Below, one piece after another: positions 100 through 62,824 of a stretch of DNA of 64,000 nt. The stretch is from positions 1 through 64,000 of the forward strand of contig JAJKFH010001908.1 in assembly GCA_023333565.1 (NCBI GenBank), given 5' to 3'. This DNA is from Puffinus mauretanicus (lineage: Eukaryota > Chordata > Aves > Procellariiformes > Procellariidae). The first letter of the stretch is position 1. Every line of letters begins with the position of its first letter. A program made the translations under genes and the position numbers. Below the pieces are notes generated by a model. That model made no database searches. It was not told where the DNA came from and was given only the letters and a program-made list of their open reading frames with translations.

Positions 100-560
100 G
101 TCCATGTCCAGGTTTTTGCAGTGGGGAAGCTGCAGTGGTCTCTCTGAGGAGAGGCCAGGGGCTGCCCCATGTCACACACAGCTGGTTCCAGACAGTTCCA
201 GCCAGCTCCAACAGACCCACCACAGGACAGAGCTGAGCCCATCAGCCAAGCTGGTGGCACCTCTATGATAACACATTTAAGAAAAGGAGAAAATACTAGA
301 CAGCAGAAAGGAAAAGAAGTATAAGACACAACAGTGAAAGCACCAAGGTCAGAGAAGAAGGAGGCGGGGGAGGTGCTCCAGATGCTGCAGCAGAGATTAC
401 CCTGCAGCCTGTAGGAGAGACCACAGTGGAGCAGGTGTTTCCCTGCAGACCGTGGAGAAGTCCATGGTGGACCAGGTATCCATCCTGCAGCCCATGGAGG
501 ACCCCATGCCAGAGCAGGTGGATATTTCCTGACAGGAACTGTGGCCGGTGGAGAGCCCAC
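100..560. repeat. Left half of an old avian interspersed repeat, split by ERV1
   Basis: This segment is GC-richer than its surroundings and contains imperfect internal repeats of the type GGAGCAGG...CTGCAGCCCATGG, spaced about 30-70 bp apart (about 375-560). The same pattern resumes directly after ERV1, and removing ERV1 plus one CCCAC copy joins the halves smoothly (…GAGCCCAC / TCTGGAGCAGG…). The pattern resembles a common bird LTR-like interspersed repeat, but I cannot name the family. The open frames across it are not convincing genes. The left limit is approximate. Confidence 0.55.
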
Positions 561-1066
561 TGTCGTGGTTTAACCTGGCAGGCAGCCAAATACCACGCAG
601 CCGCTCACTCACTCCCCCCACCCCCAGCGGGACGGGGAGAGAATCGGAAGGGTAAGAGTGAGAAAAACTCGTGGGTTGAGATAAAGACAGTTTAATAGAA
701 CAGAAAAGGGATAAATAATGATAGAATATACAAAATGAGGGATGCACAATGCAATTGCTCACCACCCGCGCTGACCGATAACCAAGTAGCGATCGGTACT
801 TCCTGGATCACGCCTACTCTTCATATACTGAGCATGACATCACATGGTATGGAATACCCCATTAGCCAGCTGGGCTGGCTGTCCTGATCATGTTCCCTCC
901 CATCTTGTGTACCTAGCTCAGTCAGTAGGCATGGAGCTGTCCTTGGACTAGGAGGGCACTTAGCAACAACTGAAAACATCAGTGTGTTATCAACATTCTC
1001 CTCATACTAAATCCAAAACACAGTACTAGGAAGAAATTTAACCCTATCCCAGCCGAAACCAGGACA
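561..1066 (-). repeat. ERV1 3' LTR
   Basis: 506 bp, bounded by TGTCGTGG on the plus strand (CCACGACA in element sense) and GGACA/TGTCC. It abuts the CCCAC target copy at 556-560 and the polypurine tract at 1067. The CRE-like site at 835-842 reads TGACATCA in plus sense, a CpG-to-CpA change from the palindrome kept in the 5' LTR. Confidence 0.93.
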
Positions 1067-1498
1067 GTATCCACCCCTTATTCCATACCATTTACGTCGT
1101 GCTTAGGTCTCACATCTTTTTTTAATACATTTCAATTAACCACCACTATCTTTCTTTATATATACACATATATATATATATGCATGCACAGATATCATTC
1201 CCTTGGTCTATGGACTATCCCTCTAAAATGTCCACTGAGTTCATTTGGTCCATGACTTTGGGCTCCATCTGTTATAACAGTCTTTCAGGGCCGAAGAGAT
1301 GGTGTGCGGTGTTGGGCCATTGCATCCTGAAGCCAGTTCTCATTTCGGTACTGCTGCGCTCGTCCAGTTCTATCATCATTGCACTTTGCTCGGTTTCATC
1401 GGAGTTAGTTCATTCTTCACTAATCTGGGTGATTTTCACTGCTATACCACTGCTATATCATAGAAATAATGATATACAATATCATGTAACAGTTGACA
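1067..1498 (-). other. ERV1 non-coding 3' segment with polypurine tract
   Basis: This lies between the end of integrase and the 3' LTR. In element sense it ends with AATAAGGGGTGGATAC, a purine-rich tract directly before the LTR (1067-1082) that is the likely plus-strand primer. It includes a TA/CA dinucleotide run at about 1159-1185. The frames on either strand are not maintained between copies, so I see no env, accessory gene or dUTPase here. A short hydrophobic frame starts ATGATATTGTAT in the related ERV3 but stops after about 10 codons in this copy. Confidence 0.75.
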
Positions 1499-2391
1499 TC
1501 AAAATTCAGTTCCTTGGCTATTTTCACCCAAAATCAAATCCCCTTGAGGTACACACCAGACCTCCCCATCCTTTACCCACCAAGTGTACCCAGGTCCCTG
1601 AGCAAAAGCAATCCCACGGATGGGTTTTCCCTTGCCAGAGGCAGGAGTAACCCAGACTGTCTTCCCCAGCATATTTCTTATGTGCACAACAGGGACTTTA
1701 TCTCCATCTACAGTACGTAAGAGTCTTGATTGGGCAGGGCCAGCTCGATTGGCAGATCCCCTGGTATTGACTAACCAGGTGGCCTTTGCTAAATGTGTGT
1801 GTCCCAATGCTTGAATGTCCCACCACCCATTGCTCTCAACGTAGTCTTTAGCAGTCCATTGTATCGTTCGATTTTCCCAGAGGCTGGTGCATGGTAGGGG
1901 ATGTGATAGACCCACTCAATGCCGTGCTCTTTGGCCCAGGTGTCTATGAGGGTGTTTCGGAAGTGAGTCCCGTTGTCTGACTCAATTCTTTCTGGAGTGC
2001 CATGTCGCCATAGGACTTGGTTTTCAAGGCCCAGGATGGTGTTCCGGGCAGTGGCATGGGGCACAGGGTATGTTTCTAACCATCCGGTGGTTGCTTCCAC
2101 CATGGTGAGCACATAGCGCTTACCGTGTCGGGTTTGTGGGAGTGTGATATAATCAATCTGCCAGGCCTCCCCATATTTATATTTCAACCATCGTTCTCCA
2201 TACCAAAGAGGCTTTACTCGCTTGGCTTGTTTGATTGCAGCACACGTTTCACATTCGTGGATAACCTGTGCAATAGCGTCCATGGTTAACTCCACCCCTT
2301 GATCACGAGCCCATCTATACGTTGCATCTCTTCCTTGATGGCCTGAGGCGTCATGGGCCCACGAAGCTATAAATAATTTACCCTTATGTTG
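1499..2391 (-). pseudogene. pol: ERV1 integrase region (frameshifted)
   Basis: The domain joins viral cDNA ends to host DNA. In element order it shows an HHCC zinc-binding module (HDASGH, then CETC), the catalytic core with D in QIDYITLP, D in ESDNGTHF and E in GKIERYNG, and a C-terminal part ending LILGENS. All three catalytic acids are present. The frame is open from after the amber codon at 2392 down to about 1797. There an extra GT in a short GT run (about 1793-1802) shifts the frame, and the rest continues in the next frame to a stop at 1499. Compared with ERV2 this copy keeps a Trp codon and lacks the 4-nt duplication that break ERV2 and ERV3 near the zinc-binding module. A 6-nt in-frame loss lies near the C-terminus (WWVKDGE). 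Confidence 0.85.
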
Positions 2392-3240
2392 CTAGTCCAA
2401 ATCCACCTGAGCCACTTCAATCTTAGCAGCCTGGTCCACCTGCTGGTTATTTTGATGTTCCTCAGTGGCCCGACTCTTGGGCACGTGAGCATCTATGTGA
2501 CGTACTTTTACAACCAGGTTCTCTACTCGGGCAGCAATATTTTGCCACAATGCGGCAGCCCAGATGGGTTTACCTCTGCGCTGCCAGTTGTTCTGCTTCC
2601 ACTGCTGCAACCACCCCCACAGGGCATTTGCCACCATCCATGAGTCAGTATAGAGATAAAGTACTGGCCATTTTCCTCGTTCAGCAATGTCCAAGGCCAG
2701 CTGGATGGCTTTCACCTCTGCAAACTGGCTTGATTCACCTTCTCCTTCAGCAGTTTCTGCAACTTGGCGTATAGGACTCCATACCGCAGCTTTCCACCTC
2801 CGATGTTTTCCCACAAGGCAACAGGACCCATCAGTGAACAGGGCATATTGCTTCTTGTTTTCTGGTAGTTTATTATACAGTGGGGCCTCTTCAGCACGTG
2901 TCACCTCCTCCTCTGTGGATATGCCAAAATCTTTGCCTTCTGGCCAGTTTGTGATCACCTCCAAGATTCCTGGGCGACTGGGGTTTCCTATTCGGGCCCG
3001 TTGTGTGATCAGTGCGACCCACTTACTCCACGTAGCATCGGCTGCATGATGTGTAGAGGGGACCCTCCCTTTGAACATCCAGCCCAGCACCGGCAGTCGG
3101 GGTGCCAAGAGGAGCTGTGCTTCAGTACCAACCACTTCCGAAGCAGCTCGAATCCCTTCATATGCTGCCAATATCTCCTTCTCAGTTGGAGTGTAGCGGG
3201 CTTCGGATCCTCTGTATCCCCGACTCCAGAACCCTAAGGG
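2392..3240 (-). pseudogene. pol: ERV1 RNase H / connection region (bounded by stops)
   Basis: RNase H removes the RNA strand of the RNA-DNA hybrid during reverse transcription. The acidic residues sit in FTDGSC, SQFAEVKAI, LYTDSWM and HIDAH, in the usual order. The segment is in the same frame as the RT part, but is separated from it by a TGA at 3241-3243, where ERV2 has CGA (a CpG transition). It ends at a TAG at 2392-2394, where ERV2 has TGG. The ATG used by a naive caller at 3169-3171 is internal and not a real start. Part of the Gag-Pol precursor in an intact element. Confidence 0.85.
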
Positions 3241-4178
3241 TCAACCTCGAGTCTCCCCTGGGGCTTTCTGCCAGAGGCTCCAGGTAGGGCCATTCTCCCC
3301 GGCTGCGGTGTAGAGCACATTCTTTACATCTTGTCCTGCCCGGACTGGCCCAAGGGCTACTGCATGAACTATCTCCCGTTTAATTTGTTCAAAGGCTTGT
3401 TGTTGCTCAGGGCCCCATTTGAAATCGTTCTTCTTCCTGGTCACGTGATAGAGAGGGCTTACGATCTGACTGTAATTTGGAATATGCATTCTCCAAAAGC
3501 CCACAACGCCTAAGAAAGCTTGTGTTTCCTTTTTGCTAGTTGGTGGGGACATGGCTGTTATTTTGTTGATCACATCTGTTGGGATCTGACGATGTCCATC
3601 TTGCCATTTTATTCCTAAAAACTGGATCTCCTGTGCAGGTCCCTTGACCTTACTTTGTTTTATGGCAAAACCAGATTTCAGAAGGATTTGAATTATTTTC
3701 TTCCCTTTCTCAAAAACTTCTTCTGCTGTGTTGCCCCACACGATGATGTCATCAATGTATTGCAGGTGCTCTGGAGCCTCACCCTGTTCCAGTGCAGTGT
3801 GGATCAGTCCATGGCAAATGGTAGGGCTGTGTTTCCACCCCTGGGGCAGTTGGTTCCAGGTGTACTGGACGCCCCTCCAAGTGAAAGCAAAATGTGGCCT
3901 GCACTCTGCCGCCAAAGGGATGGAGAAGAAGGCATTAGCAATGTCAATTGTGGCGTACCATTTGGCTGCCTTTGACTCCAGTTCATATTGAAGCTCTAGC
4001 ATGTCCGGCACGGCAGCACTCAGTGGCGGCGTGACTTCGTTCAGGCCACAATAGTCTACTGTTAGTCTCCACTCTCCATTAGACTTTCTCACTGGCCATA
4101 TGGGACCGTTAAAGGGTGAGCGAGTCTTGCTGATCACTCCTTGGCTCTCCAGTCGACGAATCAGCTCATGGATGGGGA
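3241..4178 (-). pseudogene. pol: ERV1 reverse transcriptase region
   Basis: RNA/DNA-dependent DNA polymerase core of the element. It shows the fingers motif GEWRLTVDYCGLNEV, palm D in YATIDIANAFFSIPL, LPQGWKHSPTICHG and the catalytic YIDDI at 3748-3759. Then come the thumb (FLGIKWQDGHRQIP) and the connection (FLGVVGFWRMHIPNY, SPLYHVTRKK). The motif wording matches ERV-L class III polymerases. The frame is separated from protease by a 4-nt deletion near 4180 relative to ERV2 and ends in TGA at 3241-3243. The catalytic residues are intact, so loss of function comes from the flanking breaks. Confidence 0.9.
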
Positions 4179-4688
4179 TCAGTCTCGGTTGGTGCGATAT
4201 TGCCGCCGGTGCACTGTTGTGGTAGCGATTGGTACCTGCTGTTCTTCAACCCTCAGCAACCCCACAACAGAAGGGTCCTCCGAGAGACCAGGCAAGGTGG
4301 ACAGCTGTTTAATTTCCTCTGTCTCCAGGGCAGCTATACCAAAAGCCCACCGGTACCCTTTTGGGTCCTTGAAATACCCTCTCCTGAGGTAGCCTATGCC
4401 AAGGATGCACGGAGCCTCTGGGCCAGTCACAATGGGGTGCTTCTGCCACTCATTCCCGGTCAGGCTCACTTCGGCCTCCAATACAGTTAACTTTTGGGAT
4501 CCCCCTGTCACTCCAGAAATACAAATGGGTTCTGCCGCTTTATAGCCTGATGGCATCGGGGTACACTGTGCACCAGTGTCTACGAGAGCCTTATACTCCT
4601 GTGGCTCTGATGTGCCAGGCCATCGATTCCACACAGTCCAGTAAACCCAGTTGTCCCTTTCCTCCACCTGGCCGGAGGCAGGGCCCCT
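4179..4688 (-). pseudogene. pro: ERV1 protease region
   Basis: Retropepsin-type aspartic protease that matures the Gag and Gag-Pol precursors. The active site reads ALVDTGAQ and the flap/C-terminal part reads APCILGIGYLRRG. It follows the gag UAG (4689-4691) directly and in the same frame, so there is no need for its own start; the GTG at 4667 is only an open-frame artefact. The frame ends at 4179 because four bases present in ERV2 (in GACTCTCTGATC) are missing, creating a TGA. Otherwise the domain looks whole. Private differences from ERV2 include GIGYL for GIDYL. Confidence 0.88.
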
Positions 4689-4691
4689 CTA
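4614..4691 (-). promoter_or_regulatory. Candidate UAG readthrough signal at the gag-pro junction (ERV1)
   Basis: The gag stop TAG (4689-4691) is followed by a 10-nt spacer, then by a 5-bp stem CCTCC/GGAGG (4674-4678 with 4661-4665) with an 8-nt loop GGCCAGGT. The loop segment GCCAGG can pair with CCTGGC at 4614-4619, about 40 nt downstream, which gives an H-type pseudoknot. This arrangement resembles the UAG-spacer-pseudoknot of gammaretroviral gag-pol readthrough. The pairing was done by eye. Confidence 0.5.
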
Positions 4692-6620
4692 GTTCTGGTC
4701 ATAGTATCCATCTCTCACTTCGTGCAAACGTGAGTTAAGAATTTCTTCATTGCAATTACAGTCTAAAGTAAGATCAGCCCTTCTACTCTGTCGGGGGAAC
4801 TGTTCACTGGAAACTGGACCGTCGTGAGACAGGTTTTTCCTGAAAACTGGAGCAGCATTTTTCCTGGGAGAACCCCTTTGTGTGATTGTTTTTCCTTGCA
4901 ACTCACGTACACGTGCCTCTAGGATGAAGGTAGGTTTTCCATCCCACTGCCTCATGTCCTCTCCGTGGTCACGCAGGTAAAACCACAGGGTGCCCCGCGG
5001 TGTGTACTTTCTATATCCTCTCTCTTGAGGAGAAAAACTCTGACTCCTAATGGCTGAGATACTGGTCCATACAGGTGGCGAATAGGACATATCCTCTTTG
5101 AATTGCTGGAACTCCCGGGACAGTTTCTCCACAGCCGAGACAAGGGAGGAGGAGACAGTTTCTTCAAAATCCCGAAGTCTGCTAACCACTTCATCCACCG
5201 TTGGTGCTTCTTCCTCTTTCCAGGACAGTACGGCCAACGAACTGGCATACGATGCTGGTGCGCTCCGTACCAACTTCCGCCACATGGGTCGCATGCACTG
5301 GACGTCATCTGGATCTTTGGGTGTTCGGGCGTCGTCCAGGTCACTATAAACCATCTCCAGCACGCCTAGTTCTCTCAGGTACTGGATACCTCTCTCCATA
5401 GTGGTCCATTTGCCTAGGCGATATATAACATCTTCCTTGAAGGGATACCTTTCCTTCACGCCTGACAGCTGTCGCCTCCAGAGGCTGAGGACCTGTGTCC
5501 CTTTTCCAATTGCTTTGTCAATACCCGCTTCCCTAGCAAGGGATCCCAGGTGTTTGGCTTCCTTCCCCTCTAATTCCAGGCTACTGGCCCCATTATCCCA
5601 GCATCGGAGCAGCCAGGTGACAATATGCTCGCCTGGACGACGGCCGGAATCTTTCCGCATATCTCGCATCTCATTCAGGGATAAGGATTGGGTGGTTTCC
5701 GTCTCATTTATGAGTTCTTCCTCTTCCTCCTCCCCTCCTCGTGATAGCCCTGCTTTTCCATCATCCTTTTCTAAACGACCTGACTTCCGCCTCAAAGATT
5801 TCTTCTTCTGTACAGGGGCGACAGATACCAGCGACGTTTGGTCCTCTAGTTCAGCTGTAGTACCCGTCGCGAGGGTTTGGGTAGCTGCAGTGCCTGTCGC
5901 GGGGGTTGGAGTAACTGCAGTGACTGTTGCCGGGGTCTGAGTAGCCATAGTGGTTGTTGTGGGGGCTGAAGTAGCCACGGTGCCTGTCGCAGGGGTTTGA
6001 GTAGCCACAGTGGTTGTCGTGCGGGTTGAAGTAGCTACAGTGCCTGTCATGGGGGTTTGAGTAGTCACCGTGTCTGTTGCTGGGGTTGATCTCTGGACAG
6101 TATTCCTGAATAGTTGTTTAACTCTAAACAAGGCCTGAACCACATTCAGAAGACATAGCAATATGAACATGCTCGTTTGAACATCCCAAGGATATTCAAA
6201 ATTCTCGGGGAATATCGTGGACATCTTCATGAAGAGGATAGAAGAAAAAGGAGTTTCTGAAGATATGGAAGGGAAGGTGAACAAGTGGGAGAAAGTGTCC
6301 CATCCTGTCTCCCCACTAAATTCATCCTCTGAGGTGAAGACATAAGAAGTGTAATTATTAATAGTTTCCAAAAGATAGCTCCCGAAGAACAGGAATGATG
6401 GCAGTGCTGAGTACAGGCTCGTGACCAATAATTTTATCATAACATAAAGCCAGATCACACAGTATAGCAAAGCAATGACCTTAATCCATTTCCCAGAGAT
6501 GATCAACCCCACATACAAACTGATAATCAGCAGTATAGACAGCCAGTAAGGTGCTATATACCACAACTCCAAAAACAGATCCAAAAACTCTGAGAGCAAA
6601 TAAATCAACATTGTGAACAT
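4689..6620 (-). CDS. gag: ERV1 Gag with N-terminal multi-pass membrane domain and Thr-rich repeats
   Basis: An open frame of 643 codons from the first ATG after the leader (6618-6620) to TAG at 4689. Residues 27-43 and 46-70 are strongly hydrophobic, 72-84 less so, and a further segment at about 151-165 (FILLCLLNVVQALF) could also span a membrane. An N-glycosylation-type NYT lies at 89-91. Residues about 178-260 are Thr/Pro-rich imperfect 10-residue repeats of the type TGTVATQTPA. Next comes a basic then acidic linker (KKKSLRRKSGRLEKDD, GGEEEEEEL). From about 320 a capsid-like helical region follows (RRPGEHIVTWLLRCWDNG onward), then a basic tail. No CCHC zinc knuckle is present. A membrane-spanning N-terminus is not the usual Gag plan, where a myristoylated or basic matrix is the rule. 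The gene is kept open in ERV2 as well. Confidence 0.85.
   Translation of the reverse strand: MFTMLIYLLSEFLDLFLELWYIAPYWLSILLIISLYVGLIISGKWIKVIALLYCVIWLYVMIKLLVTSLYSALPSFLFFGSYLLETINNYTSYVFTSEDEFSGETGWDTFSHLFTFPSISSETPFSSILFMKMSTIFPENFEYPWDVQTSMFILLCLLNVVQALFRVKQLFRNTVQRSTPATDTVTTQTPMTGTVATSTRTTTTVATQTPATGTVATSAPTTTTMATQTPATVTAVTPTPATGTAATQTLATGTTAELEDQTSLVSVAPVQKKKSLRRKSGRLEKDDGKAGLSRGGEEEEEELINETETTQSLSLNEMRDMRKDSGRRPGEHIVTWLLRCWDNGASSLELEGKEAKHLGSLAREAGIDKAIGKGTQVLSLWRRQLSGVKERYPFKEDVIYRLGKWTTMERGIQYLRELGVLEMVYSDLDDARTPKDPDDVQCMRPMWRKLVRSAPASYASSLAVLSWKEEEAPTVDEVVSRLRDFEETVSSSLVSAVEKLSREFQQFKEDMSYSPPVWTSISAIRSQSFSPQERGYRKYTPRGTLWFYLRDHGEDMRQWDGKPTFILEARVRELQGKTITQRGSPRKNAAPVFRKNLSHDGPVSSEQFPRQSRRADLTLDCNCNEEILNSRLHEVRDGYYDQN
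5857..6088 (-). repeat. In-frame ~30-bp tandem repeats in ERV1 gag
   Basis: About eight imperfect copies of a unit near 30 bp (in plus sense GGGGTTTGAGTAGCCACAGT and variants), each coding ten residues. ERV2 has two more units (20 residues longer), so the array varies in length without breaking the frame. Alternate units differ (ATQTP and TPTP types), suggesting a 60-bp higher-order unit. Confidence 0.8.
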
Positions 6621-6706
6621 CGAGTACTAAACTGATATAATGAATGCTTATAACAAATTTGTTTTAACCCGTTTGGGTCAGATGTGTCGTTATCTGAACC
6701 CTTTGA

Positions 6707-6724
6707 GCCCCACGTTGGGCGCCA
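6707..6724 (-). other. ERV1 primer-binding site, tRNA-Lys1,2 type
   Basis: In element sense it reads TGGCGCCCAACGTGGGGC, the 18-nt complement of the 3' end of tRNA-Lys1,2 as used by several betaretroviruses, visna-type lentiviruses and spumaviruses. It lies 12 nt inside the 5' LTR (spacer GTCCTCTTTTTT), a longer gap than the usual 0-3 nt. Confidence 0.85.
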
Positions 6725-6736
6725 AAAAAAGAGGAC

Positions 6737-7255
6737 TGTCGTGGTTTAACCTGGCAGGCAGCCAAATACCATGCAGCCGCTCACTCACTCCCCCCACCCC
6801 CAGCGGGACGGGGAGAGAATCGGAAGGGTAAGAGTGAGAAAAACTCGTGGGTTGAGATAAAGACAGCTTAATAGAACAGGAAAAGAGGGGAAAATAATAA
6901 TGATAATGATAAAATATACAAAATGAGTGATGCACAATGCAATTGCTCACCACCTGCGCTGACTGATAACCAAGTAGCGATCGGTACTTCCTGGATCACG
7001 CCTACCGTTCATATACTGAGCATGACGTCACATGGTATGGAATACCCCATTAGCCAGCTGGGCTGGCTGTCCTGATTATGTTCCCTCCCATCTTGTGTAC
7101 CTAGCTCAGTCAGTAGGCACGGGAGCTGTCCTTGGACTAGGAGGGCACTTAGCAACAACTGAAAACATCAGTGTGTTATCAACATTCTCCTCATACTAAA
7201 TCCAAAACACAGCACTAGGAAGAAATTTAACCCTATCCCAGCTGAAACCAGGACA
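6737..7255 (-). repeat. ERV1 5' LTR
   Basis: 519 bp, ending at the CCCAC target copy (7256-7260). It holds a full CRE palindrome TGACGTCA at 7023-7030 and, in element sense, a TATTAAGC stretch at about 6867-6874 where other copies keep the ATTAAA polyadenylation-like signal. It is the promoter-side LTR because transcription runs leftward. Confidence 0.92.
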
Positions 7256-10029: not shown

Positions 10030-11345
10030 GACTTAGTGCTTCAATGAAGGGATACAGGCTTTTTAGGAGGAAAGGCTGGGAAGGCAAGGAGGGGGAGTTG
10101 CCCTTTATGTGGAACAGCTGGAATGGAGGTCTGACTCCATGATGCCTCCAGGAGTCAGTCAAGAGCTTATGGGTAAAGACTAGTGGGCAGACCAACATGG
10201 GTGTTATTGTAGTGAGAATCTGCTATAGACCTCCTGATCAGGAAAAAGTAGATATGGCCTTCTTCAAACAACTGGAAGAAGCCTCACATTCACAGGCCCT
10301 GGTCCTTAACGGGGGACTTTAACTACCCTGACATCTGCTAGAGGGACATGCAGCATGACTCAGTTAATTTGGAAGATTTTTAAAGTGTGTTGAAGACAAC
10401 TTCCTGGCACAGGTAACTGAAGAACCAGTAAAGAAACGTGCTCTGCTGGACCTGATACTTATGAATAAGAAAGAACTATTCAAGGATGTGAAAGTCAAGG
10501 TAGCCTTGGCTGTGGTAACCAGGAGATGGTGGAGTTCAGGATCCTAAGAGGAGGGAGGAAGGCAAAAAAGAAGGACCACAACCTGGATTTCAGGAGAACA
10601 GACTTCAGACTCTTCAGAGACCTGCTTGGAAGAACCCCATGTGATAATGCCCTGGAGAGAAGAGAGGTCCAGGCCAGTTAGCTTAACCTCAGTCCCTGGA
10701 ATTGTGATGGAGAAAATCCACCTGGAATGTATTTCCAAACACATGAAGGACAAGAAGGTGATCAGGAGTAGTCAGAATGGATTTATGAAGGAGAAATCAT
10801 GCTTGACCAACCTCAGTGAGGTGATTGGTTTGATAGACAAGGGGAGAGCAGTTCATGTTATTTACCTTAACTTTAGCAAAGCTTTTGACACCATGTCCCA
10901 TAACATCCTCATAGAGAAGCTGACCAAGTATGGTTTAGATAAGTACACAGAGAGGTGGATTGAAAACTGGCTGAACAACCAGGTCCAGAGGGTTGTGATC
11001 AGTGGTGAAGGATTCAGCTGGAGGCCAGTCACTGGTGGTATACCCCAGGGGTCAATACTGGGGCCAATACCGTTAGAACTTTTCATTAATGACCTGGATG
11101 AGGGGATGGAATGCACCCGCAGCAATTTCACAGATAATACAGAACTGAGAGAACTGGTTGGTACACCAGAGTGTTGTGCTGCCATATAGAGCAGCAACCT
11201 GCTCGACAGGTTGGAGAAACAGGCAGAGAGGAATCTCAAAGTTCAGCAAGGGGAAATGCAAAGTCCTGCATATGGGGAGAAATAACCCCAGGCACCAGTA
11301 TACACTGAATAGAATAACAGCCATTTGTTGGATAACCTTTGGGAC
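10030..11345 (+). mobile_element. Old CR1-type LINE fragment, internally deleted
   Basis: From about 10047 the plus strand translates, with interruptions, to CR1 endonuclease features (GYRLFRRKGWEGKEGGVALYV, then CYRPPDQEK). From 10626 to 11189 it shows reverse transcriptase features ([41 protein letters not shown]). The endonuclease end (near 10640-10670) runs straight into RT motif [10 protein letters not shown]. The intervening roughly 0.7 kb seen in the complete CR1 at 45685-50118 is therefore missing. FADD is replaced by FTDN, so the polymerase is dead. The divergence and several stops indicate an old insertion. No target duplication was recognised. Confidence 0.85.
10626..11189 (+). pseudogene. 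CR1 ORF2 reverse transcriptase remnant
   Basis: An open stretch of 187 codons covering RT palm motifs of a CR1 ORF2. The N-terminal 15 or so codons belong to the end of the endonuclease part, and the rest starts at [10 protein letters not shown]. The catalytic FADD box reads FTDN, and the frame closes soon after. The upstream endonuclease remnant (10047-10625) has several stops. It served target-primed reverse transcription when intact and has no present coding function that I can support. Confidence 0.8.
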
Positions 11346-15453: not shown

Positions 15454-16961
15454 ATCATAGAATCATAGAATCATTAAGGTTGGAAAAGACCTCTAAGATC
15501 ATCGTGTCCAACCATCAACCCAACACCACCATGCCCACTACACCATGTCCCTAAGGGCCTCATCTACACGTCTTTTAAATACTTCCAGGGATGGAGACTC
15601 AACCACTTCCCTGGGCAGCCTGTTCCAAGGCCTGATCACTCTTACAGAAAAGAAATTTCTCCTAATGTCCAGTCTAAACTTCCCTTGGCGCAACTTGAGG
15701 CCATTTCCTCTCATCCTATCGCTAGTTACTTGGCACAAGAGACCAACACCTCCTTTCAGGTAGTTGTAGAGCGCGATGAGGTCTCCCCTCAGCCTCCACT
15801 TCTCCAGGCTAAACAACCCCAGTTCCCTCAGCCGCTCCTCATAAGACTTGTGCTCCAGGCCCTTCACCAGCTTCGTTGCCCTCCTCTGAACACACTCCAG
15901 CACCTCAATGTCCTTCTTGTAGTGAGGGGCCCAAAACTGAACACAGTATTCGAGGTGCGGCCTCACTAGTGCCGAGTACAGGGGCACGATCACCTCCCTA
16001 GTCCTGCTGGCCACACTAGTTCTGATACAGGCCAGGATGCCGTTGGCCTTCTTGGCCACCTGGGCACACTGCCGGCTCATGTTCAGCCGGCTGTCAACCA
16101 GCACCCCCAGGTCCTTTTCCTCTGGGCAGCTTTCCAGCCACTCTTCCCCAAGCCTGTAGCGTTGCCTGGGGTTGTTGTGGCCCAAGTGCAGGACCTGGCA
16201 CTTGGCCTTGTTGAACCTCATACAGCTGGCCTCGGCCCATCGATCCAGCCTGTCCAGGTCCCTCTGCAGAGCCTTCCTACCCTCCAGCAGATCAACACTC
16301 CCGCCCAACTTGGTGTCATCTGCAAACTTACTGAGGGAGCACTCGATCCCCTCATCCAGATCGTTGATAAAGATATTGAACAGGACCGGCCCCAGTACTG
16401 AGCCCTGGGGAACACCACTCGTGACCGGCCGCCAACTGGATTTAACTCCGTCACCACAACTCTCTGGGCTCGGCCGTCCAGCCAGTTTTTTTACCCAGCG
16501 AAGAGTGCACCTGTCTAGGCCGTGAGCCGCCAGCTTCTCTAGGAGAATGCTGTGGGAGACAGTGTCAAAGGCTTTACTGAAGTTCAGGTAGACCACATCC
16601 ACAGCCTTTCCCTCATCCACGAGGCAGGTCCCCTGCTCATAGAAGGAGATCAGGTTGGTCAAGCAGGACCTGCCTTCCATGAACCCGTGCTGGCTGGGCC
16701 TGATCCCCTGGTTGTCCCGGACATGGCTCGTCAGTGCCCTCAAAACAAACCGCTCCATGATCTTCTCCAGCACCGAGGTCAGGCTGACTGGCCTGTAGTT
16801 CCCCGGATCCTCCTTCCAGCCCTTCTTGTAGATGGGCGCCACATTGGCAAGCCTCCAGTTGTCCGGGACCTCCCCAGTTAACCAGGACTGCTGGTAAATG
16901 ATGGAGAATGGCTTGGCACGCTCCTCTGCCAGCTCCCTCAGTACCCTCGGGTAGATCCCAT
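15454..16961 (-). mobile_element. 5'-truncated CR1 LINE
   Basis: Minus-strand CR1. Its 3' terminus lies at about 15454 with the family's short tail (plus-sense AATCATAGAATCATAGAATCA followed by GGTTGGAAAAGACCTCTAAG). The body aligns closely with the complete CR1 at 45685-50118. Similarity stops at about 16961 inside the RT-coding part, which is the usual 5' truncation of LINE insertions. Confidence 0.95.
15538..16961 (-). pseudogene. CR1 ORF2 RT and C-terminal part (nearly open)
   Basis: The frame is open through the whole preserved RT region, with [37 protein letters not shown], the catalytic FADDTKLGG and the C-terminal domain ending in EALRDMV. The first 20 or so codons of the open frame (16962-17019) come from flanking DNA. 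Around 16445-16500 the protein reads [15 protein letters not shown], while the related copy reads [15 protein letters not shown]. One extra T near 16490 and one missing T near 16450 cancel each other, so the local frame is wrong yet the ORF stays open. A small in-frame loss follows YLKGG. It has no endonuclease and so cannot move by itself. Confidence 0.88.
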
Positions 16962-18569
16962 GCCATCTGCTTAAATAAGCAGATAATGTAGAAGGGCTGA
17001 TTTCCAAAGAGAACTCCATCTTTTCACTTGCCTTTTTGATACTGCAAGCAATTATATTTGCAAATAATTGTGGATATTCTCAAGCACATAGATGTCTAAA
17101 TACCAGAATGGGCCCACCAAAGAAGTAATTAGACTCAAATGTACAATAAAATGAGCCCTCAATTAATTACAGATTTAAAAATACAAACACAAAGTGGAAA
17201 TTGAGCTACAATACTATTGAAAATGAGAAAGAAAAAAAATCCTTATATGGTAAACCACATGTTCCATCATTTCTGTCTAACCACAATACTTTTATTTAGA
17301 CATTCCACTTAGCAGCAAATAACCACAAAGTCCTATCCCAAGATTCTTCTAGGAAAATAATAATCCTGCATATTATAATAAAAAAGCTTAAAACATAAAT
17401 AGTCTTGGCACTCCCATAGGACCGTGAAAGATTATAACTAGAAACAATTGCAATTTTCCCACAGTTCCCAACAAAGTGGTCAAGAGATTAGATTCAGAAG
17501 ATGCATGTGATGTTTTTATTGCCCTGTACCTGTGAAGTTAGTGGCATTTCTGGTTGTGGTTGTGAAAAATTTTCCATTTCAACTCAATGGTATTTTATTC
17601 TTGATTCATATGATTACTAGACAAAGAATAAGAAAGAGAAGTATCAAACCACCATAAGTATCTCCCATGCTGGAGAGTGTTTTCTATCTGTAGAGGCACA
17701 CTAAATCAGCACCGTTTGCTGAGATTTTTAAGGAAGTATAGTACCTGAATTAGAATCCTTATATCTATAAGCAGAGCTTGTCTCCACAGGTTTCTCCTTT
17801 GATCTCCAAAAGTTTCTTCTACATATCATCCACTTTATTCTCAGAATCACCTACTATATGAGCCAACACATTAATTTGCCTGCCAGTGTTTCAGATGTTT
17901 CTTCTCTGTAACCACTTTGTAATAAAATGTTGCAGTTTCTCATTTCTGGAGATTAATTTCTCACACTTTCTATTACTGAATGATCACGGACTTGCCATGT
18001 GAGCAGACAATATTAACTTTTTTGAATATCATGCTTTAATGAAGTTGTTATAAACTTGTTGTTGTTTTATAGCATCCTGGTTACCACATTTACTTCCTAG
18101 CAACAGAATAATATTTCCTAGGGAAGTGAAATTGTCATCGGTAGTGGCAACATTCAGCTAACAGAAAGCTGATCTGAAGAAAGATTTAAGATAGCAGCAT
18201 CAAGCAGACTAAAAGATTTAGGAGCAGAAGTCACATTCCTTCTTATTGCTTATTTTTGAAAAACCTCCTTTACTTGCTGATGATTTTCCTTTGGCTCAAG
18301 GCTTATTTCACTAATTTTCCTCTGTTCATTTGCTGAGATGGCTGCCCTACTACACCCACTTCCTCTATCAGTTTAAAAATGTGATGTGAAAACAGAAAGG
18401 AATTTTTCAACAAAAATGTTTTTCGATTAAATAGCAATGAAATATCAACTGTAAGTTTTAGTGACAATATGTCTGTTTTCACAAAAATGTCACTAGAATA
18501 CACAGGCCCAGAGTCAAATCTTAGAGCAGAAACAGAGGAGACAAGACTCATTACTCTAGAAGAGGCAGC

Positions 18570-30057: not shown

Positions 30058-30062
30058 GCCTC

Positions 30063-38232: not shown

Positions 38233-38235
38233 CTA
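38158..38235 (-). promoter_or_regulatory. Candidate UAG readthrough signal at the gag-pro junction (ERV2)
   Basis: TAG at 38233-38235, a 10-nt spacer, the stem CCTCC/GGAGG (38218-38222 with 38205-38209), the loop AGCCAGGT and the distal partner CCTGGC at 38158-38163. The loop differs from ERV1 at its first base, outside the GCCAGG that pairs distally, so both helices are kept. Confidence 0.5.
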
Positions 38236-40224
38236 GTTCTGGTCATAGTATCCATCTCTCACTTCGTGCAAACGTGAGTCAAGAATTTCTTCATTGTAAT
38301 TACAATCCAAAGTAAGATCAGCCCTTCTACTCTGTCTGGGGAACTGTTCACTGGAAACTGGACCGCCGTGAGACAGGTTTTTCCTGACAACTGGAGCAGC
38401 ATTTTTCCTGGGAGAACCCCCTTGTGTGATTGTTTTTCCTTGCAACTCACGTACACGTGCCTCTAGGATGAAGGTAGGTTTTCCATCCCACTGCCTCATG
38501 TCCTCTCCGTGGTCACGCAGGTAAAACCACAGGGTGCCCCGTGGTGTGTACTTTCTATATCCTCTCTCTTGAGGAGAAAAACGCTGACTCCTAATGGCTG
38601 AGACACTGGTCCGTACAGGTGGAGAATAGGACATATCCTCTTTGAATTGCTGGAACTCCCGGGACAGTTTCTCCACAGCCGAGACAAGGGAGGAGGAGAT
38701 AGTTTCTTCAAAATCCCGAAGTCTGCTAACCACCTCATCCACCGTTGGTGCTTCTTCCTCTTTCCAGGACAGTACGGCCAACGAACTGGCATATGATGCT
38801 GGTGCGCTCCGTACCAACTTCCGCCACATGGGTCGGGTGCACTGGACGTCATCTGGATCTTTGGGTGTTTGGTTGTTGTCCAGGTCACTATAAACCACCT
38901 CTAGCACGCCTAGTTCTCTCAGGTACTGGATACCTCTCTCCATAGTGGTCCATTTGCCTAGGCGATATATAACATCTTCCTTGAAGGGATACCTTTCCTT
39001 CACGCCTGACAGCAGTCGCCTCCAGAGGCTGAGGACCTGTGTCCCTTTTCCAATTGCTTTGTCAATACCTGCTTCCCTAGCAAGGGATCCCAGCTGTTTG
39101 GCCTCCTTCCCCTCTAATTCCAGGCTACTGGCCCCATTATCCCAGCATCGGAGCAGCCAGGTGACAATATGCTCGCCTGGACGACGGCTGAAATCTTTCC
39201 GCATATCTCGCAACTCATTCAGGGTTAAGGATCGGGTGGTTTCCGTCTCGTTTATGAGTTCTTCCTCTTCCTCCTCCCCTCCTCGTGATGGCCCTGCTTT
39301 TCCATCATCCCTTTCTAAACGACCCGACTTCCGCTTCCAAGATTTCTTCTTCTGTACAGGGGCGACAGATACCAGCGACGGTTGGTCCTCTGGTTCAGCT
39401 GTAGTACCCGTCGCGAGGGTTTGGGTAGCTGCAGTGCCTGTCGCGGGGGTTGGAGTAATTGTAGTGACTGTTGTCGGGGTTTGAGTGGCTGCAGTGCTTG
39501 TCGCACTGGTTGGAGTAACTGCAGTGACTGTTGGCGGGGTCTGAGTAGCCATAGTGGTTGTTGTGGGGGTTGAAGTAGCCACGGTGCCTGTCGCAGGGGT
39601 TTGAGTAGCCACAGTGGTTGTCGTGCGGGTTGAAGTAGCTACAGTGCCTGTCATGGGGGTTTGAGTAGTCACTGTGTCTGTTGCTGGGGTTGATCTCTGG
39701 ACAGTATTCCTGAATAGTTGTTTAACTCTAAACAAGGCCTGAACCACATTCAGAAGACATAGCAATATGAACATGCTCGCTTGAACATCCCAAGGATATT
39801 CAAAATTCTCGGGGAATATCGTGGACATCTTCATGAAGAGGATAGAAGAAAAAGGAGTTTCTGAAGATATGGAAGGGAAGGTGAACAAGTGGGAGAAAGT
39901 GTCCCATCCTGTCTCCCCACTAAATTCATCCTCTGAGGTGAAGACGTAAGAAGTGTAATTATTAATAGTTTCCAAAAGATAGCTCCCGAAGAACAGGAAT
40001 GATGGCAGTGCTGAGTATAGGCTCGTGACCAATAATTTTACCATAACATAAAACCAGATCACACAGTATAGCAAAGCAATGACCTTAACCCATTTCCCAG
40101 AGATGATCAACCCCACATACAAACTGATAATCAGCAGTATAGACAGCCAGTAAGGTGCTATATACCACAACTCCAAAAACAGATCCAAAACCTCTGAGAG
40201 CAAATAAATAAACATTGTGAACAT
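38233..40224 (-). CDS. gag: ERV2 Gag, intact, membrane N-terminus and Thr-rich repeats
   Basis: 663 open codons from ATG at 40222-40224 to the TAG at 38233-38235. The plan matches ERV1 Gag: hydrophobic segments at about 27-43 and 46-70, NYT at 89-91, another membrane-type segment at about 151-165, a Thr/Pro-rich repeat region (two 10-residue units longer than ERV1), a KKK-rich basic then EEEEE acidic linker, a capsid-like region and a basic tail without a zinc knuckle. Differences from ERV1 are mainly single substitutions (for example WVKVIALLYCVIWF for WIKVIALLYCVIWL). It is the only completely open gag besides ERV1. Its promoter LTR is gutted, so expression would need another promoter. Confidence 0.88.
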   Translation of the reverse strand: MFTMFIYLLSEVLDLFLELWYIAPYWLSILLIISLYVGLIISGKWVKVIALLYCVIWFYVMVKLLVTSLYSALPSFLFFGSYLLETINNYTSYVFTSEDEFSGETGWDTFSHLFTFPSISSETPFSSILFMKMSTIFPENFEYPWDVQASMFILLCLLNVVQALFRVKQLFRNTVQRSTPATDTVTTQTPMTGTVATSTRTTTTVATQTPATGTVATSTPTTTTMATQTPPTVTAVTPTSATSTAATQTPTTVTTITPTPATGTAATQTLATGTTAEPEDQPSLVSVAPVQKKKSWKRKSGRLERDDGKAGPSRGGEEEEEELINETETTRSLTLNELRDMRKDFSRRPGEHIVTWLLRCWDNGASSLELEGKEAKQLGSLAREAGIDKAIGKGTQVLSLWRRLLSGVKERYPFKEDVIYRLGKWTTMERGIQYLRELGVLEVVYSDLDNNQTPKDPDDVQCTRPMWRKLVRSAPASYASSLAVLSWKEEEAPTVDEVVSRLRDFEETISSSLVSAVEKLSREFQQFKEDMSYSPPVRTSVSAIRSQRFSPQERGYRKYTPRGTLWFYLRDHGEDMRQWDGKPTFILEARVRELQGKTITQGGSPRKNAAPVVRKNLSHGGPVSSEQFPRQSRRADLTLDCNYNEEILDSRLHEVRDGYYDQN
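39401..39692 (-). repeat. In-frame ~30-bp tandem repeats in ERV2 gag
   Basis: Imperfect 30-bp units coding TGTVATQTPA-like decapeptides, about ten copies against about eight in ERV1. Units beginning GTCGCACTGG and GTTGTCGGGG are extra relative to ERV1. Confidence 0.8.
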
Positions 40225-40310
40225 CGAGTACTAAACTGATATAATGAATGCTTATAACAAATTTGTTTTAACCCGTTCGGGTCAGATGTGTCGTTATCTC
40301 AACCCTTCGA

Positions 40311-40328
40311 GCCCCACGTTGGGCGCCA
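40311..40328 (-). other. ERV2 primer-binding site, tRNA-Lys1,2 type
   Basis: TGGCGCCCAACGTGGGGC in element sense, separated from the LTR edge (40337) by the 8-nt spacer GTCCTTTT. Confidence 0.85.
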
Positions 40329-40336
40329 AAAAGGAC

Positions 40337-54423: not shown

Positions 54424-54459
<36 letters not shown>

Positions 54460-54613: not shown

Positions 54614-54621
54614 GTTCTTTT

Positions 54622-54639: not shown

Positions 54640-54765
54640 ACGAAGGGTTGAGATAATGATAGATCTGACCAAAGTGTGTTAAGGCAAAATTGTTATAAGC
54701 ATTCATTATATTGATTGGTCACAATGTTGATTTATTGGCTTTCAAAGTTGTGGGGATAGTTCTCA

Positions 54766-56648
54766 ATGTTGCAATATGTAATACCTTGCTTGCAGTATAT
54801 GTTCCCGGTTGTGCTGTTTATTGCTATTCAGAACTGGGCCAAGATTATAATTCTGCTGCCGTTTTATGATGTGATAAAATCGTTGGTTATAAGTCTAATC
54901 TGTTACCTGTACTCAGTACTGCCGTCACCTCTGTACCTCGGGAACCACGCCTTAGAAACTATTAGTAATTACACTTTTTTCCCCTCGGACAATGAATCTA
55001 AGGGGGAGACAGGATGGGACATTTTGTCTGACTTGTTCATCTTCCCTTCCATAACTTCAGAAAGTCCTTTTTCTTCTATCCTCTTCATAAATACGTCCAC
55101 AATATTCCCTGAGAATTTCGAATATCCCTGGGATGTTCAAACAAGCATGATCATATTGCTATGTCTCCTGAATGTGGTTCAGGTCTTGTTTAGGGTTAAA
55201 CAACTATTTAGGAATATTGTCCAGAGATCAACCCCGGCAACAGTCACCGCAGCTACTCCAACCCCTGTGACAGGCACTGTGGCTACTCAAACCCCGGCAA
55301 CAGTCACCACAGTTACTCCAACCGCTGCAACAGGCACTGTGGCTACTCAAACCCCAACAACAGACACTGCTGGTACTCCAAGCCCCGTCACAGGCACTGC
55401 AGTCACTCAAACCCCGGCAACAGTCACTACAGTTACTCCAACCCCCGTGACAAGCACTGCAGCTACCCAAACCCCAGCAACAGGCACTACAGCTGAACCA
55501 GAGGACCAAGCCTTGCTGGTATCCGTTGCCCCTGTACAGAAGAAGAAATCTTTGAAGCAGAAGTCAGGTCGTTTAGAAAAGGATGATGGAAAACCAGGGC
55601 CATCATGAGGAGGGGAGAAGGAAGAGGAAGAACTCATAAACGAGACGGAAACCACCCAATCCCTATCCATGAGTGAGTTGTGAGATATGCAGAAAGATTT
55701 CAGCCGTCGTCCAGGCGAGCATATTGTTACCTGGCTGCTCCAGTGCTGGGATAATGGGGCCAGTAGCCTGGAATTAGAGGGGAAGGAAGCCAAACACCTG
55801 GGATCCCTTGCTAGGGAAGCAGGTATTGACAAAGCAATGGGAAAAGGGACACAGGTCCTCAGCCTCTGGAGGCGACTGCTGTCAGGCGTGAAGGAAAGGT
55901 ATCCCTTCAAGGAAGATGTTATATATCGCCTAGGCAAGTGGACCACTATGGTGAGAGGTATCCAGTACCTGAGAGAATTAGGTGTGCTAGAGGTGGTTTA
56001 TAGTGACCTGGACAACAACCAAATGCCCAAAGATCCAGATGAAGTCCAGTGCATGCGACCCATGTGGCGGAAGTTGGTATGGAGCGCACCAACGTCGTAT
56101 GCCTGTTTGTTGGCAACATTTTCCTGGGCAGAGGAAGAAGCACCAACGGTGGATGTCGTGGTTAGCAGACTTCGGGATTTCGAAGAAACTGTCTCCTCCT
56201 CCCTTGTCTCGGCTGTGGAGAAACTGTCCCGGAAGGTCCAAGCAACTCGAAGAGGGTATATCCTATTCTCCACCTGTACGGACCAGTATCTCAGCCATTA
56301 GGAGTCAGCGTTCTTCTGCTCAAGAGAGAGGATACAGAAAGTACACACCGCGGGGCACCCTGTGGTTTTACCTGCGTGACCACGGAGAGGACATGAGGCA
56401 GTGGGATGGAAAACCTACCTTGACCCTACAGGCACGGGTACGTGAGTTGCAAGGAAAAAAAATCACACAAGGGGGTTCTCCCAGGAAAATGCTGCTCCAG
56501 TTGTCAGGAAAAACCTGTCTCACAACGGTCCAGTTTCCAGTGAACAGTTCCCCAGACAGAGTAGAAGGGCTGATCTTTGTATTGTAATGAAGAAATTTTT
56601 GACTCACATTCGCAAGAAGCGAGAAACAGATATTATGACCAGGACTAG
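54766..56648 (+). pseudogene. gag: ERV3 unit 1 gag, broken by two stops and two frameshifts
   Basis: It starts at ATG 54766 and ends at TAG 56646-56648. The N-terminus is hydrophobic (MFPVVLFIAI, IIILLPFY, LVISLICYLYSVL) although its sequence differs widely from ERV1/ERV2. NYT, the FPENFEYPWDVQTSM stretch and the second membrane segment (IILLCLLNVVQVLF) are kept. Thr/Pro repeats follow. Two CGA-to-TGA changes (55606-55608 and 55681-55683) interrupt the linker, a 1-nt insertion near 56240 and a 1-nt loss near 56487 shift the frame after the capsid-like region. No zinc knuckle. In the same position as other gag genes, with the UAG and downstream hairpin still present. Confidence 0.87.
55231..55491 (+). 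repeat. In-frame ~30-bp tandem repeats in ERV3 unit 1 gag
   Basis: Imperfect units such as ACAGGCACTGTGGCTACTCA, each about 30 bp and coding ten Thr/Pro-rich residues. The second unit's copy (61407-61667) differs by four clustered bases near 61621-61632. Confidence 0.82.
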
Positions 56649-60598: not shown

Positions 60599-60634
<36 letters not shown>

Positions 60635-60789: not shown

Positions 60790-60797
60790 GTTCTTTT

Positions 60798-60815: not shown

Positions 60816-60941
60816 ACGAAGGGTTGAGATAATGATAGATCTGACCAAAGTGTGTTAAGGCAAAATTGTTATAAGCATTCATTATATTGATTGGTCACAA
60901 TGTTGATTTATTGGCTTTCAAAGTTGTGGGGATAGTTCTCA

Positions 60942-62824
60942 ATGTTGCAATATGTAATACCTTGCTTGCAGTATATGTTCCCGGTTGTGCTGTTTATTGC
61001 TATTCAGAACTGGGCCAAGATTATAATTCTGCTGCCGTTTTATGATGTGATAAAATCGTTGGTTATAAGTCTAATCTGTTACCTGTACTCAGTACTGCCG
61101 TCACCTCTGTACCTCGGGAACCACGCCTTAGAAACTATTAGTAATTACACTTTTTTCCCCTCGGACAATGAATCTAAGGGGGAGACAGGATGGGACATTT
61201 TGTCTGACTTGTTCATCTTCCCTTCCATAACTTCAGAAACTCCTTTTTCTTCTATCCTCTTCATAAATACGTCCACAATATTCCCTGAGAATTTCGAATA
61301 TCCCTGGGATGTTCAAACAAGCATGATCATATTGCTATGTCTCCTGAATGTGGTTCAGGTCTTGTTTAGGGTTAAACAACTATTTAGGAATATTGTCCAG
61401 AGATCAACCCCGGCAACAGTCACCGCAGCTACTCCAACCCCTGTGACAGGCACTGTGGCTACTCAAACCCCGGCAACAGTCACCACAGTTACTCCAACCG
61501 CTGCAACAGGCACTGTGGCTACTCAAACCCCAACAACAGACACTGCTGGTACTCCAAGCCCCGTCACAGGCACTGCAGTCACTCAAACCCCGGCAACAGT
61601 CACTACAGTTACTCCAACCCCCACGATAGGCACTGCAGCTACCCAAACCCCAGCAACAGGCACTACAGCTGAACCAGAGGACCAAGCCTTGCTGGTATCC
61701 GTTGCCCCTGTACAGAAGAAGAAATCTTTGAAGCAGAAGTCAGGTCGTTTAGAAAAGGATGATGGAAAACCAGGGCCATCATGAGGAGGGGAGAAGGAAG
61801 AGGAAGAACTCATAAACGAGACGGAAACCACCCAATCCCTATCCATGAGTGAGTTGTGAGATATGCAGAAAGATTTCAGCCGTCGTCCAGGCGAGCATAT
61901 TGTTACCTGGCTGCTCCAGTGCTGGGATAATGGGGCCAGTAGCCTGGAATTAGAGGGGAAGGAAGCCAAACACCTGGGATCCCTTGCTAGGGAAGCAGGT
62001 ATTGACAAAGCAATGGGAAAAGGGACACAGGTCCTCAGCCTCTGGAGGCGACTGCTGTCAGGCGTGAAGGAAAGGTATCCCTTCAAGGAAGATGTTATAT
62101 ATCGCCTAGGCAAGTGGACCACTATGGTGAGAGGTATCCAGTACCTGAGAGAATTAGGTGTGCTAGAGGTGGTTTATAGTGACCTGGACAACAACCAAAT
62201 GCCCAAAGATCCAGATGAAGTCCAGTGCATGCGACCCATGTGGCGGAAGTTGGTATGGAGCGCACCAACGTCGTATGCCTGTTTGTTGGCAACATTTTCC
62301 TGGGCAGAGGAAGAAGCACCAACGGTGGATGTCGTGGTTAGCAGACTTCGGGATTTCGAAGAAACTGTCTCCTCCTCCCTTGTCTCGGCTGTGGAGAAAC
62401 TGTCCCGGAAGGTCCAAGCAACTCGAAGAGGGTATATCCTATTCTCCACCTGTACGGACCAGTATCTCAGCCATTAGGAGTCAGCGTTCTTCTGCTCAAG
62501 AGAGAGGATACAGAAAGTACACACCGCGGGGCACCCTGTGGTTTTACCTGCGTGACCACGGAGAGGACATGAGGCAGTGGGATGGAAAACCTACCTTGAC
62601 CCTACAGGCACGGGTACGTGAGTTGCAAGGAAAAAAAATCACACAAGGGGGTTCTCCCAGGAAAATGCTGCTCCAGTTGTCAGGAAAAACCTGTCTCACA
62701 ACGGTCCAGTTTCCAGTGAACAGTTCCCCAGACAGAGTAGAAGGGCTGATCTTTGTATTGTAATGAAGAAATTTTTGACTCACATTCGCAAGAAGCGAGA
62801 AACAGATATTATGACCAGGACTAG
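60942..62824 (+). pseudogene. gag: ERV3 unit 2 gag, same lesions as unit 1
   Basis: A copy of 54766-56648 shifted by 6,176 bp. It has the same TGAs (61782-61784, 61857-61859), the same two frameshifts and the same terminal TAG (62822-62824). Differences seen: one Ser-to-Thr change near 61227 (ACTCC for AGTCC) and four clustered bases in the Thr-repeat near 61621-61632. Sharing every lesion shows that the duplication came after the gene had decayed. Confidence 0.88.

What the first reader, a model, noticed from the sequence alone, without database searches (positions are those of the whole stretch)
4689..6620. Gag that begins with a multi-pass membrane domain and a mucin-like repeat region
In ERV1 and ERV2 the same uninterrupted frame contains strongly hydrophobic segments (residues about 27-43, 46-70, 151-165), an NYT sequon between them, an 80-100 residue Thr/Pro repeat domain, a charged linker and then the capsid-like part. 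Retroviral Gag normally targets membranes by myristate or basic residues, and I know of no described Gag family with this layout. One reading is a Gag inserted into membranes as an integral protein, or a captured membrane/mucin-like module replacing matrix and possibly compensating for the lack of env. This is the strongest candidate for an undescribed system in the window.
Basis: partly seen in the sequence, partly recalled or inferred. Interest (0 to 1): 0.78.

Follow-up and report, generated by a model that had tools for sequence, protein, structure and literature searches.

The report
Bird retroelement Gag with membrane anchor
In a family of old bird retrovirus-like elements that seem to lack an envelope gene, the capsid protein begins with what looks like its own membrane-spanning anchor, which suggests that these elements assemble on internal cell membranes; the mucin-like stretch next to it is probably only a flexible linker.

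Summary
On the minus strand at 4689-6620 and 38233-40224 one uninterrupted gag frame (643 and 663 codons) encodes 3-4 hydrophobic segments, an NYT sequon, a Thr/Pro repeat, a charged linker and a capsid-like part. All four proviral copies carry the hydrophobic module. It recurs across birds: relatives in ducks, hawks, an ibis and a manakin keep hydrophobic segments at about 27-52% identity, and 16 of 18 non-redundant sequences keep the sequon N-X-T while X varies. Basic residues follow the last segment, so the sequon loop should be lumenal and the rest, repeat included, cytosolic. A mucin ectodomain is therefore unlikely; the repeat is also Ala/Pro in Anas ducks and short elsewhere. Nor did the module simply replace matrix: 31 of 35 held proteins with the module have a further helical domain behind it, absent from the window copies. 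ERV1 has no env ORF and a foamy-virus-like integrase. Best reading: co-translational ER insertion of Gag and intracellular assembly, analogous to mouse IAP Gag but multi-pass and probably N-glycosylated. Localisation, glycosylation and budding are untested. New variant of a known kind.

The parts
4689..6620 (-). ERV1 gag, 643 codons, uninterrupted; TAG stop followed in the same frame by a protease-like ORF
6564..6611 (-). hydrophobic segment H1, residues 4-19 (Met4 is a possible start)
6498..6554 (-). hydrophobic segment H2, residues 23-41
   Evidence: KD 2.13
6423..6479 (-). hydrophobic segment H3, residues 48-66
   Evidence: KD 2.53
6348..6356 (-). sequon NYT, residues 89-91, in the loop between H3 and H4
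   Evidence: N-X-T kept in 16 of 18 non-redundant sequences with residues at the site
6126..6182 (-). hydrophobic segment H4, residues 147-165, followed by basic RVKQLFR
5835..6095 (-). Thr/Pro repeat linker, residues 176-262 (30-nt unit)
5061..5678 (-). capsid-like part, residues 315-520
   Evidence: weak CA C-terminal-domain-like matches
38233..40224 (-). ERV2 gag, 663 codons, uninterrupted, same layout
54760..56587 (+). ERV3 gag, in broken pieces; membrane module present
60936..62763 (+). ERV4 gag, in broken pieces; membrane module present
6737..7255 (-). ERV1 5' LTR, TG...CA; target-site duplication GTGGG outside
561..1066 (-). ERV1 3' LTR, 94.6% identical to the 5' LTR including gaps
6707..6724 (-). 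primer binding site, matching the 3' end of tRNA-Lys1,2 (match recalled)
   Evidence: sequence
1789..4688 (-). ERV1 protease-like, RT, RNase H and integrase ORFs (interrupted); no coding-strand ORF of 100 aa or more lies between them and the 3' LTR apart from the overlapping 1499-1915

Best explanation
This is the gag gene of an env-less, class III-like (ERV-L-type) endogenous retrovirus family of birds. Shown by sequence: Gag starts with a conserved module of 3-4 hydrophobic segments with a conserved N-X-T sequon in the loop before the last one, then a basic stretch, a variable repeat linker and the capsid part. Inferred: the first segments are recognised co-translationally and inserted in the ER; the sequon loop is lumenal and glycosylated; linker and capsid stay in the cytosol, tethered to the membrane. 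Gag thus needs neither myristate nor an Env partner to reach a membrane, and assembles on and probably buds into the ER, giving an intracellular replication cycle. The Thr/Pro repeat is a flexible cytosolic spacer that changes by slippage.
For: Module present in 4 of 4 proviral copies of the window. Of 121 proteins held then (P0002 and the 120 listed homologues), 26 matched residues 1-175, some of them only the last segment; they include ducks, hawks and an ibis, and one search added manakins. Of 26 N-termini, 16 have three or more segments at KD >= 1.4, 7 have two and 3 have one; 24 of 26 keep the sequon. Non-redundant set: N-X-T in 16 of 18, X = Y, C, Q or R; the T and N columns are among the six most conserved of 154, median column conservation 0.56. 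In 21 of the 23 rows whose last detected segment is the one before the basic stretch, at least 4 K+R lie in the 25 residues after it; in all 23 there are 3 or fewer before it. No GTRAG donor or upstream ATG in the leader. No env ORF >= 100 aa on the coding strand between the end of pol and the 3' LTR of ERV1. [quoted passage not shown] MuERV-L, an env-deficient ERV-L, gives particles that accumulate in the ER (PMC5930517 passage); Ty1 Gag enters the ER through SRP (PMC3945221 abstract).
Against: No experiment and no dedicated topology predictor was available. AlphaFold confidence in the module is low (10-residue block means 33-57, 29-62). Shuffles keeping the composition of residues 1-175 often give as many segments. 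In 3 of 26 relatives only one segment passes the threshold; two of them (P0022, P0023) are not N-truncated. Two of 26 lack the sequon, and 2 of 18 in the non-redundant set. Selection tests have little power: ERV1/ERV2 module 2 synonymous and 6 non-synonymous changes, omega 0.91 (capsid 0.51); ERV1/ERV3 module omega 0.60, where alignment errors may inflate both rates (capsid 0.64). Most held homologues do not match the module: 110 of 145 lack it, largely because the gene models start later or are joined to other exons (my reading).
Confidence: 0.62

Rival explanations
1. The hydrophobic stretch acts only as an ER-targeting signal (IAP-like) and is cleaved or retro-translocated; Gag does not stay as a multi-pass anchor.
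For: IAP Gag reaches the ER by SRP (only the title of Fehrmann 2003 was seen, in the reference list of PMC3945221); Ty1 Gag enters the ER lumen and is thought to return (abstract).
Against: Several segments and a sequon conserved before the last one are more than a signal needs.
Confidence: 0.17
2. One reading: a captured membrane/mucin module whose Thr/Pro domain is an O-glycosylated ectodomain standing in for Env.
For: 54-64% T+S+P in residues 176-262 of the window copies; weak Pfam Mucin match in 3 of 18 relatives, best E 0.0096.
Against: No hydrophobic segment between repeat and capsid; repeat is Ala/Pro with 3-9% Thr in five Anas sequences, and 12-17% Thr over 34-40 residues in P0029 and P0005.
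Confidence: 0.05
3. The module is a viroporin or FAST/sORF2-like fusogen that moves capsids between cells without Env.
For: Env-less Drosophila elements use a small transmembrane protein, sORF2, for this (PMC11952523 abstract).
Against: Here it is fused to Gag and has several segments; no fusion-peptide or amphipathicity test was made; no Pfam link found.
Confidence: 0.09
4. The hydrophobic part is not in the working protein (downstream start or splicing) and persists by descent.
For: Host-gag chimeric gene models join just after the module (USP4) or inside the linker (AMFR), which suggests acceptor sites downstream of it.
Against: Same frame, start region and sequon kept across distant birds; no GTRAG donor in the leader.
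Confidence: 0.07

Closest known systems
TguERVL2 family of bird ERVL elements (Boman et al. 2019, PMC6523648)
   Different: The word 'transmembrane' does not occur in that paper's main text; its consensus is not held here, so identity was not tested.
Mouse IAP Gag
   Same: Env-less element whose Gag N-terminus sends assembly to the ER (PMC8096092 Discussion).
   Different: From memory, IAP is class II with a short signal-like N-terminus; here class III-like, 3-4 segments, conserved sequon.
MuERV-L / ERV-L of mammals
   Same: Env-deficient; particles accumulate in the ER (PMC5930517 passage).
   Different: 'Hydrophobic', 'transmembrane', 'signal peptide' and 'myristoyl' do not occur in that paper's main text; its Gag was not compared here.
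XtERV-S of frogs (PMC8278194)
   Same: ERV-L-type gag without zinc finger, short 158-bp leader (passages).
   Different: Polybasic N-terminus, no membrane module in the passages seen, has env, tRNA-Ser primer site.
Foamy virus Gag/Env pair (PMC3705266)
   Same: Closest solved integrase is PFV.
   Different: Foamy Gag lacks a membrane-targeting signal and relies on Env (passages); here Gag seems to carry its own anchor.
sORF2 of insect MDG1-group retrotransposons (PMC11952523)
   Same: Env-less LTR element with its own membrane protein (abstract).
   Different: sORF2 is a separate short protein; here the module is part of Gag.

Membership tests
Class III (ERV-L-like) endogenous retrovirus | Pol related to spuma/ERV-L pol | tested here: inconclusive
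   Integrase: the eight best of 24 PDB sequences have E 1.2e-15 to 1e-12; four name PFV, the other four are foamy by recall; HIV from 6.8e-6. RT: gammaretroviral-type and Pr125Pol chains score alike, E 2.4e-42 and 4.5e-41 (source viruses recalled). No RT tree was built.
Class III (ERV-L-like) endogenous retrovirus | No zinc finger in Gag | tested here: met
   No C-x2-C-x4-H-x4-C in P0001 or P0002
Class III (ERV-L-like) endogenous retrovirus | No env (ERV-L proper) | tested here: met
   ERV1 only: no coding-strand ORF >= 100 aa between the end of pol and the 3' LTR
Class III (ERV-L-like) endogenous retrovirus | Capsid related to MERVL/Fv1 | not tested
   Resemblance recalled only; no Fv1 or MERVL sequence was used in any call
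TguERVL2 | DNA similarity to the TguERVL2 consensus | not testable with these tools
   Repeat library not held; layout agrees
IAP-type ER-targeted Gag | Class II Gag with zinc fingers (recalled) | tested here: not met
   No zinc finger
IAP-type ER-targeted Gag | Gag N-terminus directs it to the ER | not testable with these tools
   Needs expression
Integral membrane protein | Hydrophobic segments long enough to span a membrane | tested here: met
   Three 19-residue peaks with KD 1.89-2.53 in P0001
Integral membrane protein | Positive-inside charge bias and sequon on the other side | tested here: met
Mucin domain | S/T/P-rich repeat conserved as such | tested here: not met
   Thr 3-9% in five Anas sequences; linker 34-40 residues in P0029, P0005
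Mucin domain | Lumenal or extracellular exposure | tested here: inconclusive
   Predicted cytosolic from hydropathy and charge only
FAST/sORF2-type fusogen | Separate short protein with a transmembrane segment | tested here: not met
   Module is in frame with the capsid in one ORF

The most novel reading that the evidence does not exclude
Gag serves as capsid and surface protein in one: after budding into the ER the glycosylated loop faces outward on the particle, and this one-piece arrangement replaced Env in a bird-wide lineage, perhaps allowing exit through the secretory route. Birds in turn may have fused the same capsid part to an ER-membrane ubiquitin ligase (AMFR) and to USP4.
Probability: 0.12. 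Interest if true: 0.88.

Novelty: new variant of a known kind. Interest (0 to 1): 0.6.

Why it matters
Loss of env and retargeting of Gag are thought to turn retroviruses into intracellular retrotransposons; the worked example is mouse IAP. A class III-like bird family in which Gag became a multi-pass, probably glycosylated membrane protein would be a second, structurally different route, kept in lineages as distant as ducks and manakins, and would make the question how env-less elements assemble directly testable with one expressed protein. It also says what a number of unnamed 'hypothetical proteins' in bird genomes are.

Full report
What is there. The finding lies on the minus strand. ERV1 runs from a 5' LTR (6737-7255) to a 3' LTR (561-1066); the LTRs are 94.6% identical (gaps counted; 15 mismatches over 521 columns), begin TG, end CA and are flanked by the 5-bp duplication GTGGG. 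ERV2 (34082-40422) has duplication CTATA and an internally deleted 5' LTR; ERV3 starts at 54082 on the plus strand and shares an LTR (from 60257) with ERV4, which leaves the window; 29530-30058 is a solo LTR with duplication GCCTC. The 114-nt leader of ERV1 holds a primer site, no ATG and no GTRAG donor. Gag is intact in ERV1 and ERV2; it ends in TAG and in ERV1 a protease-like ORF follows in the same frame. Pol of ERV1 is present but interrupted: protease-like, RT (PF00078), RNase H (PF00075), integrase (PF00665). There is no env ORF of 100 aa or more on the coding strand before the 3' LTR of ERV1.

The Gag. Residues 1-175 contain segments at 4-19, 23-41, 48-66 and 147-165, an NYT at 89, then RVKQLFR; residues 176-262 are the Thr/Pro repeat (30-nt unit, 7.6 copies in ERV1, 9.1 in ERV2); a charged linker and the capsid part follow. 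AlphaFold gives long helices for the module at low confidence (mean pLDDT 45.3, 18 sequences, P0005, mean 59.6, 84 sequences), and better-predicted helices for much of the capsid part (block means 73-93 from residue 381 to 520 of P0005).

Distribution. A search with P0001 gave 268 proteins with E <= 0.001; the best 120 are listed, and the named ones are from birds except one labelled Klebsiella pneumoniae (P0117), probably contamination. Of 121 proteins (these 120 and P0002), all matched the C-terminal part and 26 the module, some only its last segment. A search with residues 1-265 of P0005 gave 50 proteins, the named ones again from birds; it added Manacus with the whole module, while Turdus and Zosterops matched only in the middle domain. 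Split into module (nt), middle domain (wd) and capsid (ca), the 145 held proteins fall into nt+wd+ca 30, wd+ca 56, ca only 51, nt+ca 4, wd only 3, nt+wd 1. So 31 of 35 with a module also have the middle domain, and the common layout is module - middle domain - repeat - capsid. The middle domain (consensus around GWQGVW..MGRYLE..PPV.WKFTPEQ) has no match in the window by tblastn and is also missing in P0117 and P0130. It is predicted helical, pLDDT block means 58-77 from residue 171 to 240 of P0005; its position is that of a matrix domain, but no fold match was significant.

Topology. In 26 N-termini examined, 16 had three or more segments at KD >= 1.4, 7 had two, 3 had one (P0030 and P0028 are N-truncated models); the sequon was present in the loop in 24 (all but P0127 and P0128). 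Leaving out P0022, P0023 and P0072, where the last detected segment is not the final one, 21 of 23 have at least 4 K+R in the 25 residues after the last segment, and all 23 have 3 or fewer before it. In a non-redundant set of 19 (below 85% identity) N-X-T stands in 16 of the 18 with residues there, with X = Y, C, Q or R; the exceptions are P0127 and P0021; the most conserved columns are E142, T91, Y59, M4, L157 and N89. A conserved N and T around a variable X is what selection for glycosylation predicts. If the capsid part is cytosolic, as RNA packaging requires (established retroviral biology), the sequon loop is lumenal, the short loop GKWIK is cytosolic, and with four segments the N-terminus is cytosolic too. 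The repeat, with no segment between it and the capsid, is then cytosolic and not a mucin ectodomain. This is inference from hydropathy and charge.

The repeat. Its Thr content is 42-43% in P0001 and P0002, 17% in P0005 (40 residues), 12% in P0029 (34 residues), 3-9% in five Anas sequences where Ala and Pro make up 63-78% over 210-380 residues (18 of 22 sequences had the end anchor; the start was a default in P0001 and P0002, which lack the middle domain, and in P0028, where the pattern missed it). It differs in length between ERV1 and ERV2 by 20 residues. This looks like a slippage-prone spacer.

Mosaic. Between ERV1 and ERV3, 250-base pieces (local alignments) are 82-83% identical in the LTR, 73-87% from the LTR end through leader and module, 85% in the repeat, 90-96% in the rest of gag, 91-99% in pol, and 77-82% again near the 3' end; synonymous divergence is 0.445 in the module and 0.098 in the capsid part. 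The LTR-leader-module block and the capsid-pol block seem to have different histories, probably by template switching (inference).

Mechanism. The best-supported reading is a Gag inserted co-translationally in the ER and assembling on its membrane. Shown: module, conservation, sequon, charge pattern, absence of an env ORF in ERV1. Inferred: ER, glycosylation, budding, intracellular cycle. It would work like IAP Gag, where the N-terminal region decides targeting (PMC8096092 Discussion read), and ER accumulation of particles is known in an env-deficient ERV-L, MuERV-L (passage). It is not a member of the IAP family by the one feature tested, the zinc finger, and its integrase is PFV-like. Foamy viruses, whose Gag lacks a membrane signal and needs Env (passages), show the problem that such an anchor would solve.

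Literature. Boman et al. 2019 (section 3.4 read) describe TguERVL2 with a 'broken ENV' match in gag; the same architecture may be meant, and I think the match may rest on the Thr/Pro repeat. Crocodilian ERVs have captured KIT-ligand and nectin3 (passages), so capture is possible in general, but I found no host relative of this module.

Side finding. AMFR isoforms of owls (Strix, Athene, Bubo) and parrots (Pezoporus, Lathamus) join at one place (VPFPTQ) to this gag's linker and capsid, and USP4 isoforms of Buteo, Accipiter and Tyto join at one place (SCLGLQK) just after the membrane module. These are database gene models; no transcripts were seen. In a 26-row capsid tree the AMFR-gag rows group together (88/91) and the USP4-gag rows too (92/89), both under the starred threshold; ERV1 and ERV2 fall with two wood stork (Mycteria) rows (91/88), so the window may come from a related waterbird. 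Owl and parrot gag parts are only 56-61% identical while their AMFR parts are 95-96%, no closer than to other bird gags, so great age, fast change and separate insertions are all open.

Noticed in passing
P0078, P0080, P0082, P0084, P0086, P0087 (protein hits): AMFR (ER-membrane ubiquitin ligase) isoforms of owls and parrots end in this ERV-L gag linker and capsid, same host junction in the five chimeras compared (P0080 has extra residues in between); possibly an old co-opted Gag, since the ligase brings its own ER membrane domain.
   Followed up: partly
P0047, P0067, P0077 (protein hits): USP4 isoforms of Buteo, Tyto and Accipiter join the same gag family just after its membrane module; many crane gag pieces are named USP4, probably by transfer from such chimeras.
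   Followed up: partly
window 54082-64000: Tandem proviral array: ERV3 and ERV4 share an LTR, spacing about 6176 bases, N-terminal gag pieces with 5 non-synonymous and 0 synonymous differences over 282 codons; recent duplication, gene conversion or assembly effect.
   Followed up: partly
window 40304-40422: ERV2 5' LTR lacks most of its interior although its gag frame is intact.
   Followed up: no
window 559-7255 against 54082-60256: ERV1 and ERV3 are mosaic: LTR, leader, gag 5' part and 3' end diverge far more than capsid and pol.
   Followed up: yes
window 15538-17019, 45770-48571, 10626-11189: Other reverse transcriptase ORFs; the one at 45770-47506 has an endonuclease ORF beside it (47585-48571), as in a LINE (bird CR1 is likely, recalled).
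   Followed up: partly
P0117 (protein hit): A bird-type ERV gag filed under Klebsiella pneumoniae, probably host DNA in a bacterial assembly.
   Followed up: no
P0104 (protein hit): King penguin RNA polymerase II CTD phosphatase model with a piece of this capsid inside its frame; gene-model artefact or exonised ERV.
   Followed up: no
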